From: Solirubrobacterales bacterium
GTDB lineage: Bacteria > Actinomycetota > Thermoleophilia > Solirubrobacterales > 70-9
Assembly (NCBI GenBank): GCA_020438355.1
Contig: JAGQUT010000001.1
Span: 124,001-188,000 of the forward strand
Reading direction: 5' to 3'
DNA length: 64,000 nucleotides
Shown here: piece by piece, positions 1 through 17,967 of the stretch
Layout: each line of letters opens with the position of its first letter
Numbering within the stretch: position 1 is the stretch's first letter
Program-made: the position numbers and the translations under genes
Notes under the pieces: generated by a model
Seen by the model: only the letters and a program-made list of their open reading frames with translations
The model's database searches: none
Told to the model about the DNA's origin: nothing

Positions 1-176
1 CCCGCCCAGATCGGTTTTCGGTACGAAGACGGTCTAGAATTCCTTGCCAGGCACGGTGTAACCGAGATAGCTACCTTCGAAGGTCGGGAAAGGACATCCC
101 GGCCGATTGGTGTTCTCGGGACCCCGAACACGCAACGAAAATCCATTTTTGGGGCCGGTGAGGCTCCGGGGGAACA

Positions 177-3100
177 ATGAATCAGGATGCGCTGCCCGAC
201 CGGACGTCGGGAAAGTACGGGGGCAATTGGTCCGATCGTTCGAAGGGCATGACGAGCAGGACTCTTGGTGGCCTGATCCTGGCTCTCCTCATGGTCCTTG
301 CCGTACCTTCATGGGCTGGAGCGGCTGGCGTGCCAGACATTTCGCTAGACAAGTCAACCTCCGGGACCGTGCTGCTCGGCGGCAACTCGACGGTGACCCT
401 CAGTGCGGCCAACCCGTCGGGTGAACCGACCGGATACAACCTGAGCTTTCGCGACGTGCTGCCGGCCGGCGTCAGTTACGTGTCGGGTTCGTCTCCCACC
501 GCCACTGGCGAACCACAAGTAATCGCCAACGCACCTTCAGCGGGCCAGACAACCCTGATCTGGTCGAACGTCGCGGATCTCACACCCAACTCGACCTTCG
601 AGTTCAGCTTCCAGGTTGCCAACGACCCGGGCCAGTTCAGCATCGGGGACAGCTACACCAATAACGCCGGGGCGTACCTGAACTGTGACCCCCGGTACGT
701 ACCCAAATTCAACGCCCAGGGTCAGCCCGTTCAGAGCGGCGGCAACCCGAACTGCTCCGGGATCCCACCCGAGACTTCCTACACCGGTTCTGCCACTGAC
801 AGCGCGAACACACAGATCAAGGCGATCGACATCGCCAAGTCGGAGCCTTCCCCGGAAGGGCAGCTGCTCCGCGGACTTCACGAGAACCAGACCGTCTACA
901 CCCTGACCGTGACCAACAATGAAGTCGATCCGGACGACAACGTCATGGTCGAGGATTACCTGCCGGCGGGTCTCGAGTTCCTCGGTTGCGGAACCCTCGA
1001 CAACACGACGGATGCCCCCACCAATCCCGGAAGCAGCGAGGAGTATCCGGGGTCGGGTCCGATCAACCCGGGTAACGCTCCAGCCGCACCGTTCTGCGTG
1101 AATCCGGATGTCGTCGAAACCGTCCTTGACCCGCCGGGCCTGCCCGCAGGCGTCTACACCCACGTGGTCTGGAACAACCTCGGCAACCTCGCGCCGTCCT
1201 CCCAGCTGCAGATCCAGTACGTCGCGGCGATCCCGATCAGGGAGAACACGATGAGCTGGTCCGGCCCTGTTCCGGCGACCAACGGTCCGCAGGGCTCCAA
1301 TCTCGACAACAACTCTGGCGCGGAAACCACCCACGGGCAGGGCCTGACCAATCACGCAACGGTAAGCGCCGACTACCAGGGTCCCGGCGGTCCAACCGCC
1401 GTCACCGATACGGAGAGCCACACCGTTGAGGGGGTTGACCTTCGAATCGTCAAGTCGGTCAGCCCCGGCAATCTTTCGGTCGGGCAGATCAGCACCTGGT
1501 CGCTCGACATCTCGACCAGCGAATACCGCTACTTCGAGGATGTCGTGGTCACCGACACTCTCGGCAACGGATACTGCCCGCTCGGTCCTGTCAATTACGA
1601 GCACACACCGCCTCCGGCAAGTATCGACTGCGACCCGGTTTCGGGTCAGAACCCGTCGGCACCTTACACGTCGGCGGAGGAGCAGGTAAACGGCACCTGG
1701 GAAATCAGCTGGGATTCCAGTACTGCGCCGGCTCTTGGAACCATCGAGCCGAACTCGGACCTGACGATCACATTTCCGACCCGGACCCGCGAGTACTACC
1801 AGCAGAACTTTCAGCCCTCGGCACCTGTGCTGGCCAATGACGACGGCGAGAACGCCGTAAACATCGAAGGTGCCGCATCGGTCATCTGTTCGCCGGGGCC
1901 GCCATCTCCCTGTCCTCCCCTTGACCCCGACCGCATCGACAGTGACTTCATCAACGGTACGGTTCTCCAAGACGATTCGAGCGCGACCCAGGTCGGCTCG
2001 GGGCCGACCATCAACAAGCAGGTCAGCCCGACCGTCAACGGCAACTGCGGCTCGCTGAACAACTACGCGAGCGGGGTGGTTCCGGTGGCCTCGCCCGGAG
2101 ACACCATCTGCTGGCGGCTGACCATGACCTTCCCGGCGACCCTGACGACAAAGGAGGTCCGGGTCGCCGACTTTTTCCCGCCCGGAACTTCGTACGTAAC
2201 AGGCAGCACGGTTGCCCTGCCGACCAACACGGTCACCATCGCCAATCCGTCGCCACCACAGCCGGAACTGATCGGCGACGTCGGACTGCGCTGGACCCTC
2301 GCCGACACCGGTGACGAGGTGTCGCCCGGAAAGGTCTTTGACGTGGTCTTCTCGACACAGGTCGAACGGACCGTCACCTCTTTCGACGGGGAGATCACGG
2401 CGAACCTGATGAAGGGCGTCTACAAAAACACGGACGGGGTCTCGTTCCCGCTGCGTGACGATGAGAACTTCGAACGCTCGCAGCCCGAGATCAGCCTGCT
2501 GAAGGGAGTTTTCAAGGTGGACGGCCAGCCGCCGGCAGGCAACCCGCCGAATACCGACGGCGTCGTGGTCGACGGAGGCCAGGACGTCACTTACCGCGTG
2601 GACATCACGAATGACGGATCGGTCAACTCAATCAACACACAGGTATGGGACATCCTCCCTCCGGAGGTCAGCTGTGCCGATCTGGTGCCTGCCTCCATTT
2701 CGAACGGAGGCACCTGCAACGTGTTGCAGGACAGGATCGAGTGGTCTGGTCTGACCGTGCCGGCCCCGGGTTCATTGACCCTCACGTACACGGTCGAGAT
2801 CCCGGACGAACTCAGCGGAGGCGACGTGCTCGTGAACAACGCCGGTGTGCGTCAGTTCGCGTCGAGCAGCGGCTCGGGTCCTTACGTCCAGATCCCGGAG
2901 GAGAACATCGATCCGACCCAGGATCCGAGCGCGAACGCGCCGGCTGCCGATGACCCTTCGAACGTCGTGATCGAGAGCTCAGTGCTGGTCAAGACCCGCT
3001 CCACCCAGATAACCCAGCCCGGCAACAACGCGGGAACCCAGGCCACGATCGGTGAACAGATCAATTACACGGTCACGGCGACGATCCCCGAGGGCACCAG

Positions 3101-15416: not shown

Positions 15417-17081
15417 GTGACGCAAGAGCAACTCGAGGCCTACCACGAGTACACGCGCAAGTACGGGGTGAACCGCGGTCTTTACCTCGTCGCGCGGATC
15501 ATTCTGCAGCCGTTTTTCCTCGTCTATTTCAGGCTTTCCCGGCAGGGTCGACAGAACTCGCACATCAAGGGCGCGACCATCGTCGCCGCCAACCACCGGA
15601 GCTTCCTCGACCCTTTCGTGATCGGTTCGTGCCTGCCCTGGGGCAAGCCGATGAACTACGTCGCCAAGGTCGAGCTTTTCGAGAAACGCTGGCAGGGATA
15701 TCTCCTCTGCCGCGTAGGTGCCTTTCCGATCCGGCGCGGAGAAGCTGACGAGCTGGCAATAGAAACCGCCGAGAAGGTCCTGGAGCGCGGCGGGTCCATC
15801 TGCATCTTTCCCGAGGGAACCAGGATTCGCCGGGGCTCCCTGGGTAAACCGAAGCGTGGCGTCGGGCGTCTGGCTTTGCGGAGCGGCGCCCCGGTCCTCC
15901 CGGTTGCCGTTACCGGGACAGAGCATGTCCGGCGTGGCTGGCGGATACGCCCGCGCAAGGTTGACATCAGGGTTGGCAGGCCGATGTCCTTTCCGCAGTC
16001 AGAGAACCCCTCGCCAGCGCTCGCAGCCTCGGTGACGGACCGCATCTGGCCGAACGTCGAACTTCAGTGGGAGGACATCGGCGGTCTGCCCCCGATGCGT
16101 CGCGCGGCCGTCATCGGCGCCGGCAGCTGGGGCACAGCCGTCGCCGTGCTGCTCGCGCGAGGCGGCCTGGATGTCCAGTTGGGAACCCGGACCGCTGCCC
16201 AGGCGGAGGAGATGGCACTCGCCCGCGAGAACGCCAGGTACCTGCCGGGGGTGCGGCTGCCGGACGGCATCGAGGTCCGGGCCTCCAGCCAGATTGAACT
16301 CGGCGGAGTCGACCTGCTCTGTATCGCCGTGCCGTCAGCTTCTTACCCCCAGGCCGTCGGTGCGGTGGCCGACCGGGTTGGTCGCCGGGCCGGAGTGCTC
16401 CTGCTCGCCAAGGGGCTGATCGCCCCCAAAGGCCAGCTTCCCTCGGAGTATGTGAGCGAACGCATCCGCTCCCGGGGCGTCTCTTGCCTGGGTGGCCCCG
16501 CGCACGCGAGGGAAGCGGTCTCCGGTTCCGCCGCCCTGGTGCTCGGCAGCGGCAACGCCGATCTGCGGGCCCAGTTGGGAGACGTTTTTGATCGGGCCGG
16601 TCTCGTCTGCGAACGATCTCGAGACGTAGTCGGGGTCGAGATGGCCGGAGCCGCAAAGAACGCGGCCGTGCTCGCCGCGGCCGCGGCAGAGCCTCATGGA
16701 CTGAACGCCGCCGGGATTGCCGCCGCAGCCGTCTGGGACGAATGCGTCGGCTATGCGGTGAGAAACGGAGCCGACCTCGAGACTTTCAACGGGCTGGCCG
16801 GCGTCGGTGACTTGCTGGCGACCGTTATGGCTTCCGGAAGCCGCAACCGCAGAGCCGGGGAATTGCTCGGCAAGGGCAACGCCCCGGAACAGATTCGAGA
16901 GACGATCGGCCAGGCTTCCGAGGCTCTCGACTCGGTACCCCAGATTGCCGCGACTGTGGCCGCCGCTGGATGCCCGGCCGACGCTCTGACCGGGCTGGCA
17001 GACCTGGCCACCGGCAGGATCAGTTCAGACGAGTGGGTCGCCGCGCTTCGGCGCTCCGGTCATTCGAGGAGGGCAGCATGA
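15417..17081 (+). CDS. PlsC-GpsA fusion: acyltransferase plus glycerol-3-phosphate dehydrogenase
   Basis: One 554-residue reading frame joins two phospholipid-synthesis enzymes. Residues about 20-225 form a lysophosphatidic-acid-type acyltransferase, with the NHxxxxD box at N59-D65 (NHRSFLD) and FPEGTR at 131-136. Residues 227-554 form a complete NAD(P)-dependent glycerol-3-phosphate dehydrogenase, with GAGSWG at 234-239, CLGGPAHAREA and the catalytic Lys in EMAGAAKNAA. The join (LPPMRRAAVIG) has no stop or frameshift. The internal ATG at 16095 has no clear ribosome site, so a single polypeptide is likely. The two parts act at the first and third steps of phosphatidate synthesis; PlsX/PlsY-type enzymes are not in the window. 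The start at 15417 is a GTG, 17 bp after the esterase. Confidence 0.93.
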   Translation: MTQEQLEAYHEYTRKYGVNRGLYLVARIILQPFFLVYFRLSRQGRQNSHIKGATIVAANHRSFLDPFVIGSCLPWGKPMNYVAKVELFEKRWQGYLLCRVGAFPIRRGEADELAIETAEKVLERGGSICIFPEGTRIRRGSLGKPKRGVGRLALRSGAPVLPVAVTGTEHVRRGWRIRPRKVDIRVGRPMSFPQSENPSPALAASVTDRIWPNVELQWEDIGGLPPMRRAAVIGAGSWGTAVAVLLARGGLDVQLGTRTAAQAEEMALARENARYLPGVRLPDGIEVRASSQIELGGVDLLCIAVPSASYPQAVGAVADRVGRRAGVLLLAKGLIAPKGQLPSEYVSERIRSRGVSCLGGPAHAREAVSGSAALVLGSGNADLRAQLGDVFDRAGLVCERSRDVVGVEMAGAAKNAAVLAAAAAEPHGLNAAGIAAAAVWDECVGYAVRNGADLETFNGLAGVGDLLATVMASGSRNRRAGELLGKGNAPEQIRETIGQASEALDSVPQIAATVAAAGCPADALTGLADLATGRISSDEWVAALRRSGHSRRAA

Positions 17082-17126: not shown

Positions 17127-17693
17127 GTGTCCGGCCCCGACGCCACACCCACCCCGGAGTCGAAGGCCGAGATCGATCGGGCCTTCGAGCAGCTGTACCG
17201 CGATCACCTCAAGGACGTCTATTCGTACTCGTACTACCGGATCGGCAACCACCACGACGCCGAGGACCTGACCGAGCAGACCTTTCTCCAGGCGTACCGG
17301 CACTTCGCGCGAGCAAGGCAGGAGTCGGACGGAAGGCCGCTGCGGCCCTGGCTGATCAGGATCGCCCACAATCTCGCTGCGAACTATCACCGCGACCGCT
17401 CCCGCAAGCCGCAGACGCCACTGGACAGCATCGAACCACCGGCCGCGAGGCACTCGACCGAGGATCTGGTGGAAGGCCGGGAAGAACTCCGGGCGGTCAT
17501 CGAGAACCTTCAGGAACTGCCAGACGATCGTCGCGAAGCCCTGGTAATGAGATTCGCGCTAGGCATGGACAATCGGGAAATCGCCCGGGCCATGGGCAAA
17601 TCGGACGGAGCCACAAAGGTGTTGATCCATCGCGCGATCAAGCAACTTCAGGAACTGCTCGAAGCGGAAGGAGCGCCCGTTGAGCATGGATGA
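17127..17693 (+). CDS. ECF-type RNA polymerase sigma factor
   Basis: This 188-residue sigma factor has region 2 (FEQLYRDHLKDVYSYSYYRI ... DAEDLTEQTFLQAYRHF, then RPWLIRIAHNLAANYHRDR) and region 4 (LPDDRREALVMRFALGMDNR then EIARAMGKSDGATKVLIHRA). It lacks regions 1.2 and 3, as in ECF factors. The linker at about residues 105-120 is rich in Pro and Ser. GTG 17127 gives a normal length. The next gene overlaps its last 8 bases and encodes a small membrane protein, the usual position of an anti-sigma factor. The signal it responds to is unknown. Confidence 0.9.
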   Translation: MSGPDATPTPESKAEIDRAFEQLYRDHLKDVYSYSYYRIGNHHDAEDLTEQTFLQAYRHFARARQESDGRPLRPWLIRIAHNLAANYHRDRSRKPQTPLDSIEPPAARHSTEDLVEGREELRAVIENLQELPDDRREALVMRFALGMDNREIARAMGKSDGATKVLIHRAIKQLQELLEAEGAPVEHG

Positions 17694-17967
17694 AATCCGC
17701 ATCGAAAGCCTGCTCGCTGATGCCCTGAAGCCGGTTGATCCTCCGCAGAGAATGTCGGACCGCCTTCACGACACTTTCTCCGCCATCTCCGATGCGGCGG
17801 CGACCGATCTCTCCGACTGGGCCGAAGAGCTGACCGAAAGCGAGCTTGAATCGCTTCGCGATCCCCGAAACTGGATCCGGCCAGTTACCGCTCTGGCGGC
17901 CGGCGGCGTCGCCACCGGTGCCCTGATTCTCGTCGGCTTCCGCCGGCGAGGCCGCTTTCGCCCCTAG
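17686..17967 (+). CDS. Small single-helix membrane protein, candidate anti-sigma factor
   Basis: This 93-residue protein has an acidic N-terminal cytoplasmic part (ATDLSDWAEELTESELESL), one predicted membrane helix near the C-terminus (ALAAGGVATGALILVGF) and a short RRRGRFRP tail. It overlaps the ECF sigma gene by 8 bp (ATG 17686), so translation is probably coupled. It lacks the HxxxCxxC zinc anti-sigma motif and any periplasmic domain. If it is an anti-sigma factor, it is of an unrecognised type. No named family is apparent. Confidence 0.7.
   Translation: MDEIRIESLLADALKPVDPPQRMSDRLHDTFSAISDAAATDLSDWAEELTESELESLRDPRNWIRPVTALAAGGVATGALILVGFRRRGRFRP

What the first reader, a model, noticed from the sequence alone, without database searches (positions are those of the whole stretch)
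15417..17081. PlsC-GpsA fusion joins two phosphatidate-synthesis enzymes
One uninterrupted frame carries an intact acyltransferase (NHRSFLD, FPEGTR) and a complete glycerol-3-phosphate dehydrogenase (GAGSWG, catalytic Lys). The dehydrogenase makes glycerol-3-phosphate and the acyltransferase domain acts two steps later, skipping the first acylation. The N-terminal domain might therefore perform the first acylation, or the fusion may channel or co-regulate the pathway.
Basis: partly seen in the sequence, partly recalled or inferred. Interest (0 to 1): 0.7.

Follow-up and report, generated by a model that had tools for sequence, protein, structure and literature searches.

The report
PlsC–GpsA fusion of Solirubrobacterales bacteria
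One order of bacteria fuses the enzyme that makes glycerol-3-phosphate to a membrane-lipid acyltransferase and appears to have lost the standard enzyme for the first acylation step, which makes that step's replacement a well-defined thing to test.

Summary
In detail: one 554-codon frame (15417-17081, +) joins a complete PlsC-type acyltransferase to a complete GpsA. It is no artefact: 35 of 53 sampled genomes of its order (Solirubrobacterales by the titles of related records) carry both halves in one match; I saw it nowhere else in class and phylum samples. The order lacks canonical PlsY (5 of 53, weak hits; 137 of 146 elsewhere in the class) and nearly all PlsB (1 of 53) but keeps PlsX (53 of 53), so its first acylation is non-standard. 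The fused domain is not the best candidate for that step: it has the LPAAT motif FPEGTR. A second PlsC-like paralog, in 52 of 53 order genomes, mostly has a PlsB-like EGGRSR motif and lies beside glycerol kinase in 28 of 30 loci. The GpsA half is decayed or gone in several lineages that have a standalone sister GpsA, while the acyltransferase persists; obligatory channelling is therefore unlikely, co-localisation or co-regulation more plausible (an ECF sigma gene follows in 77 of 80 testable loci). A dual, PlsM-like activity is not excluded. All activities are inferred.

The parts
15417..17081 (+). plsC-gpsA fusion CDS, 554 aa, GTG start
   Evidence: AlphaFold2 model pLDDT 91.0, pTM 0.86
15417..16094 (+). 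acyltransferase half (aa 1-226), PlsC fold, N-terminal helices 3-16 and 20-37
   Evidence: PF01553; VIA-align Z 20.3, 2.9 A, 193 residues to T. maritima PlsC 5kym, model 19..224
15591..15611 (+). block I NHRSFLD (aa 59-65)
   Evidence: sequence; H60 and D65 invariant in 29 fusions
15807..15824 (+). block III FPEGTR (aa 131-136), LPAAT-type
   Evidence: sequence; in the 80 loci, 70 have FPEGTRxR after block I, 1 has FPEGRRIR, 9 gave no pattern match
16095..17078 (+). GpsA half (aa 227-554)
   Evidence: PF01210 and PF07479; VIA-align Z 40.6, 2.0 A, 323 residues to Coxiella GpsA 3k96
16656..16661 (+). Lys414-Asn415 of GpsA (AAKNAAV)
16842..16847 (+). Arg476-Asn477 of GpsA (SRNRR)
   Evidence: invariant in 20 and in 29 aligned fusions
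17127..17693 (+). ECF sigma factor (best model BldN family, below its cut-off), conserved neighbour of the acyltransferase gene
17686..17967 (+). 93-aa protein with one hydrophobic stretch, overlapping the sigma gene; anti-sigma-like by position only (conjecture)

Best explanation
It is a bifunctional, probably membrane-peripheral protein. The C-terminal GpsA reduces dihydroxyacetone phosphate to G3P. The N-terminal PlsC domain acylates lysophosphatidate (second acylation) and holds the dehydrogenase at the membrane, where G3P is used. In this order the PlsX/PlsY route to LPA has been remodelled: canonical PlsY is gone, and the first acylation is most likely done by a GlpK-linked second PlsC-family enzyme (family B, outside the window). 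Shown: sequence, distribution in the samples, PlsY loss at detectable similarity, decay of the GpsA half; folds by prediction; single origin by a quick tree. Inferred: all activities, membrane tethering, and who acylates G3P.
For: Both domains complete. The fused GpsA is the only PF07479 match in the own genome; no order-type standalone GpsA is listed for f1, f4, G115 or G145. PlsY: none in own genome, 5 of 53 in the order at 94-104 bits against 137 of 146 outside. PlsB domain: 1 of 53 (G081). PlsX: 53 of 53. Family B: 52 of 53 order genomes at 342 bits or more, best match in the 146 others 163.2 bits (9 of the 52 supplied the profile). G175 has only the fusion and B as PF01553 proteins. Block III of B: EGGRSR in 25, EAGRSR in 3, EGTRSR in 2 of 30 loci; GlpK beside it on the same strand in 28 of 30; 3 of 3 GlpK scanned pass the equivalog cut-off. 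B's profile reaches 9vuq, named glycerol-3-phosphate acyltransferase, at 3.3e-5; the fused domain's reaches it at 0.29 but PlsC 5kym at 1.2e-19. NCBIfam plsB TIGR03703: 6 of 9 B (best 2.4e-8), 4 of 12 A (best 2.6e-4); AGP_acyltrn best 7.9e-33 for A, 1.9e-23 for B. Fused GpsA forms one clade (28 rows, SH-aLRT 97) beside the standalone clade (11 rows, 94).
Against: No activity was measured. FPEGTR versus EGGRSR is a weak guide: mitochondrial GPAT1 (8e4y, EGTRSR) matches family A (0.0097) better than B (0.59), and squash GPAT (1k30, 1iuq) appears for A only (0.61); two B members have EGTRSR. Both A and B match PlsC best. Four of 53 order genomes show no A-level match (G124, G139, G180, G194) and one (G005) no B. 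GpsA's product is not the LPAAT substrate, so the benefit of the fusion is unexplained. PlsX kept without PlsY is unexplained.
Confidence: 0.55

Rival explanations
1. The fused PlsC domain is PlsM-like: it acylates both G3P (perhaps at sn-2 first) and LPA, so G3P made by the GpsA half is handed to the acyltransferase half.
For: Precedent: PlsM of Mycobacterium smegmatis, PlsC-type, uses G3P and 1-acyl-G3P (PMC10593935, passages). Known GPATs are missing in most of the order. Fusion to a G3P-making enzyme.
Against: The GpsA half is lost or broken in lineages that keep the acyltransferase. A separate PlsB-like, mostly GlpK-linked paralog exists in 52 of 53 genomes. PlsM itself shows an apparent preference for LPA.
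Confidence: 0.22
2. Roles are swapped: the fused domain is the GPAT and family B the LPAAT.
For: Fusion to the G3P-making enzyme; G175 has only these two PF01553 proteins. Mitochondrial and squash GPATs match family A slightly better than B.
Against: Block III and the plsB, AGP_acyltrn, 9vuq and 5kym scores point the other way. G139, a single-contig genome, has B but no A-level match.
Confidence: 0.13
3. A very divergent PlsY remains; the fusion is a plain LPAAT plus GpsA and the first step is unchanged.
For: PlsX is kept in 53 of 53. Five order genomes have a weak PlsY-like protein; three of them compared (G017, G184, G157) match a canonical PlsY at 35-40% over 100-136 residues, as second PlsY-like copies outside the order do (41-44%).
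Against: At E up to 10 there is none in 7 of 10 order genomes searched, own included; G093 and G198 have only sub-cut-off hits (0.016, 0.096), G017 the weak protein.
Confidence: 0.08
4. A sequencing or assembly error joined two genes.
For: None found; the own genome is a draft in 133 contigs.
Against: Same fused frame in 35 of 53 order genomes and in named isolates such as Paraconexibacter antarcticus, complete genome. The old start position holds a start codon in only 18 of 51 resolved junctions.
Confidence: 0.01

Closest known systems
[quoted passage not shown] maritima PlsC, 5kym)
   Same: Fold (Z 20.3, 193 residues), NHX4D and FPEGTR motifs, N-terminal helices
   Different: Fused to GpsA; 23% identical
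GpsA, G3P dehydrogenase (Coxiella GpsA, 3k96)
   Same: Full fold (Z 40.6, 323 residues) and conserved Lys, Asp, Arg-Asn residues
   Different: C-terminal half of a fusion; 28% identical; below the cut-offs of the NCBIfam GpsA models
PlsM of mycobacteria (PMC10593935, passages read)
   Same: PlsC-type enzyme in actinobacteria without PlsY; accepts G3P and LPA
   Different: Standalone; its sequence was not compared here; by the paper M. tuberculosis also lacks PlsX, this order keeps it
Dunaliella salina GPDH (6iuy)
   Same: A GPDH domain within a longer chain (585 residues)
   Different: The extra domain is, from recall, phosphatase-like, not an acyltransferase
PRK08633 / PRK08043 acyl-ACP-phospholipid O-acyltransferases (NCBIfam)
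   Same: A PlsC-like domain inside a larger lipid enzyme; partial match
   Different: The other part is an acyl-ACP ligase by the name of PRK08043 (for PRK08633 recall), not GpsA

Membership tests
PlsC / LPAAT | PF01553 over cut-off, NHX4D, FPEGTR | tested here: met
PlsC / LPAAT | NCBIfam AGP_acyltrn TIGR00530 cut-off of 102.95 bits | tested here: not met
   95.1 bits for the isolated half, 92.7 for the whole protein; best model for the half, yet under the cut-off
PlsC / LPAAT | Acylates LPA | not testable with these tools
   needs an assay
GpsA | PF01210 and PF07479 over cut-off; conserved Lys, Asp and Arg-Asn | tested here: met
GpsA | NCBIfam PRK00094.1-4 cut-off of 257 bits | tested here: not met
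   183.2 bits
PlsB-type GPAT | GPAT_C PF19277 | tested here: not met
   not in the fusion, not in own genome
PlsY-type GPAT | PF02660 | tested here: not met
   not in the fusion, not in own genome
PlsM | sn-2 acylation of both G3P and LPA | not testable with these tools
   needs an assay; sequence not compared

The most novel reading that the evidence does not exclude
Solirubrobacterales have replaced PlsY by a PlsC-family G3P acyltransferase, a bacterial route to LPA that is neither PlsB nor PlsX/PlsY. Two PlsC-family enzymes are each tied to a different G3P source (GpsA by fusion, GlpK by neighbourhood), and one of them may still take acyl-phosphate from the retained PlsX.
Probability: 0.45. 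Interest if true: 0.72.

Novelty: new variant of a known kind. Interest (0 to 1): 0.52.

Why it matters
Acylation of G3P is the entry to membrane phospholipids, and in bacteria it is assigned to PlsB or PlsX/PlsY, with mycobacterial PlsM as an addition. Here a whole order keeps PlsX but shows no canonical PlsY and has two PlsC-family enzymes, each linked to a G3P-producing enzyme. That turns 'who acylates G3P' into a two-gene complementation test. The fusion and its later decay also give a clear case of gene duplication, fusion and reciprocal loss.

Tried and rejected
Rejected: assembly error. Separate translation of GpsA from its old start: a start codon in 18 of 51 resolved junctions (5 of 56 rows unresolved); GGAGG upstream in 3 and GGAG in 2 more of the 51, three of these five with a start codon. 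Fusion elsewhere: of the listed matches outside the order that begin before the GpsA half, the six with G537, G469, G409, G514, G466 and G080 were fetched with two others, G544 and G227, for comparison. In G469 and G409 plsC and gpsA are neighbouring separate genes; in the other six no acyltransferase is joined to GpsA. Further such rows (for example G042, G051) were not fetched. PlsY hidden by the threshold: none in own genome at E up to 10.

Led nowhere: the promoter/terminator scan (0 promoters; 2 terminator-like sites, 2.3 expected). Paper searches for the fusion or the pathway (listings, open-access PMC text only) showed no report of it; 'EGGRSR' gave no paper. VIA-align rows are mostly GpsA relatives. 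Family B was not folded: its proteins come from whole-genome loci, which the fold tool's description does not admit; I did not submit it.

Against my reading: the exceptions G124, G139, G180, G194 (no A-level match), G005 (no B), G081 (PlsB present), two B proteins with EGTRSR, G093 and G151 without GlpK in the flank held. GPATs of mitochondria and squash match A better than B. A is not clearly closer than B to PlsC outside the order: mean 107 against 103 bits to 7 outside PlsC. Six further dN/dS pairs were computed (PlsC/GpsA half): window with L210 and L211, 0.24/0.17 and 0.21/0.23; L022-L025 0.17/0.10; L030-L226 0.29/0.38 and L030-L028 0.58/0.72, where GpsA is not the more constrained half; L072-L073 0.09/0.37. 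Counts come from a row list cut at about E 3e-36. Of the 95 loci L067-L081 and L207-L286, six distant rows (L280-L284, L286) were not given.

Full report
Observation. The frame 15417-17081 (+) is open for 554 codons and holds PF01553 (aa 43-165), PF01210 (231-375) and PF07479 (403-538), all over cut-off. An AlphaFold2 model from 29 aligned sequences has mean pLDDT 91.0 and pTM 0.86. The N-terminal half aligns with T. maritima PlsC 5kym (Z 20.3, 2.9 A, 193 residues), the C-terminal half with Coxiella GpsA 3k96 (Z 40.6, 2.0 A, 323 residues). Helix 200-220 leads almost directly into the first Rossmann strand at 229. The old gpsA start position holds ATG, GTG or TTG in only 18 of 51 resolved junctions, with a GGAGG or GGAG upstream in 5 of 51, so one polypeptide is the simplest reading.

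Distribution. In a sample of 199 genomes of the class, 53 belong to the window's order (families f1-f4). Read by eye from the rows: 35 have one match covering both halves, 3 a partial GpsA half (G160, G071, and G169 at a contig end), 11 the acyltransferase half alone (G053 near a contig end), and 4 no match at that level (G124, G139, G180, G194). In the window's family f1 it is 14 of 15. Among the other 146 class genomes no listed match starts before query residue 171 and runs into GpsA. In 396 genomes of the phylum the listed matches that cover both halves without a stop are from the order; of 8 outside regions fetched, 2 have neighbouring separate genes and 6 nothing joined. A scan of the named collection kept the best 80 loci of more than it could list: full fusions in Paraconexibacter antarcticus, Solirubrobacter deserti, S. 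taibaiensis and Ca. S. pratensis, a shortened one in Conexibacter sp. DBS9H8, the acyltransferase alone in Patulibacter minatonensis. The name Solirubrobacterales rests on these record titles.

History of the GpsA half. In a quick tree, fused GpsA sequences form one clade (28 rows, SH-aLRT 97) beside the order's standalone GpsA (11 rows, 94); both together (100) are apart from 16 outside sequences (no bootstrap, and two long fused branches were flagged). One duplication and one fusion explain this. No order-type standalone GpsA is listed for f1, f4, G115 or G145, and the own genome has a single GpsA, the fused one. In G118 and G103 the fused GpsA has lost Lys414 and Arg-Asn; in G160 it is cut short; in G053 a poor remnant runs to the contig end; in G184, G081, G142, G186 and G121 it is gone. 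Of the 11 genomes with the acyltransferase half alone, 10 show a standalone GpsA (not G163), and so do G118, G103, G160, G071 and G169. Between the two genomes with a decayed GpsA half dN/dS is 0.09 for the acyltransferase and 0.37 for GpsA; between the window and four relatives 0.05-0.12 and 0.03-0.10; other pairs are less clear (see Tried and rejected). The acyltransferase therefore does not need the attached dehydrogenase.

The missing first acylation. Own genome: no PlsY even at E up to 10, no PlsB C-terminal domain, one PlsX. Class sample: PlsY in 5 of 53 order genomes, all weak (94-104 bits), and in 137 of 146 others; PlsB domain in 1 of 53 order genomes; PlsX in 53 of 53. In 14 genomes searched for PF01553, the seven of the order have 2 to 7 proteins and the seven others 1 to 3; G036, G018 and G004 have one each and also PlsY. 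G175 of the order has two: the fusion and one more.

Family B. A tree of the 49 PF01553 proteins puts the A domain in one clade (99/99; 7 of 7 order genomes) and has a second clade B (100/100; 7 of 7). A profile of 9 B proteins finds B at 342 bits or more in 52 of 53 order genomes, 9 of which supplied it; the best match in the 146 others is 163.2 bits. G005 is the exception. Block III is EGGRSR in 25, EAGRSR in 3 and EGTRSR in 2 of 30 loci. GlpK lies beside B on the same strand in 28 of 30; 3 of 3 scanned pass the NCBIfam equivalog cut-off. B's profile reaches 9vuq (named glycerol-3-phosphate acyltransferase; PlsB by my reading), whose aligned motif is EGGRSRTG, at 3.3e-5; the fused domain's reaches it at 0.29. 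NCBIfam plsB TIGR03703 is matched by 6 of 9 B members (best 2.4e-8) and 4 of 12 A members (best 2.6e-4); AGP_acyltrn best is 7.9e-33 for A and 1.9e-23 for B. Against this, mitochondrial GPAT1 is matched better by A (0.0097) than by B (0.59), and squash GPAT only by A (0.61). That EGGRSR marks PlsB and FPEGTR marks PlsC is recalled, supported here only by the PDB alignments.

How it works. Best reading (0.55): GpsA plus LPAAT on one chain, the PlsC N-terminal helices holding the dehydrogenase near the membrane, and B doing the first acylation with G3P from GlpK or from the fused GpsA. GpsA's product is not the substrate of an LPAAT, so direct hand-over would need a dual-activity acyltransferase. 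Such an enzyme exists: PlsM uses G3P and 1-acyl-G3P with an apparent preference for the latter (PMC10593935; passages). I give that rival 0.22.

Regulatory neighbour. The acyltransferase gene is followed on the same strand by an ECF sigma gene 68-96% identical to the window's in 77 of 80 loci with room downstream; 9 more end too early, and some genomes occur twice. The three without it are L081 (a different acyltransferase, 42%), L243 and L244. It is there whether or not the GpsA half is kept. In the window the sigma gene (17127-17693; best model BldN family, 122.8 bits against a cut-off of 206.45) overlaps a 93-aa protein with one hydrophobic stretch. Co-transcription is a guess; it was not tested.

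Ancestral setting. In G036, outside the order, the cluster reads prephenate dehydrogenase, EPSP synthase, plsC, LytB, a DUF512 protein, EngA/der, plsY, gpsA, polA. Loss of the stretch between plsC and gpsA could have removed plsY and produced the fusion at once. This is conjecture: the gene now lies beside an ECF sigma gene, and the GpsA duplication has to be fitted in.

Literature. Nine searches (listings only) found no report of the fusion in the open-access PMC library. PMC6431249, PMC13400652 and PMC10593935 were read as passages. [quoted passage not shown]

Verdict. A real, conserved, lineage-specific fusion of two known enzymes, in an order whose first acylation step is not carried by a known GPAT at detectable similarity in nearly all genomes sampled.

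Noticed in passing
window 17127-17693 and related loci: ECF sigma gene directly downstream of the acyltransferase gene in 77 of 80 testable loci, in most of them more conserved than the acyltransferase; a small protein with one hydrophobic stretch overlaps it in the window.
   Followed up: partly
G000 C67:110440-111363 (L038) and the 52 other order genomes sampled: PlsX is retained although canonical PlsY is not found, so the consumer of acyl-phosphate is unknown.
   Followed up: partly
L231, L235, L239, L241: Records titled Bifidobacterium breve MAG carry the fusion at 46-59% identity per half; the labels are probably wrong.
   Followed up: no
G120, G129, G156, G174, G183, G187 (family f10, genus g79): Only weak PlsY matches (7e-27 to 7e-22) outside the order too, a possible second case of a changed first step.
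   Followed up: no
G139 (single contig) and G194: Family B present, but the best match to the fusion is only about 1e-34 and 4e-32, so neither the fused acyltransferase nor an order-type GpsA is seen.
   Followed up: no
G000 C67:140438-140761 (L006): Weak PF01553 protein on the strand opposite cmk and near it.
   Followed up: no
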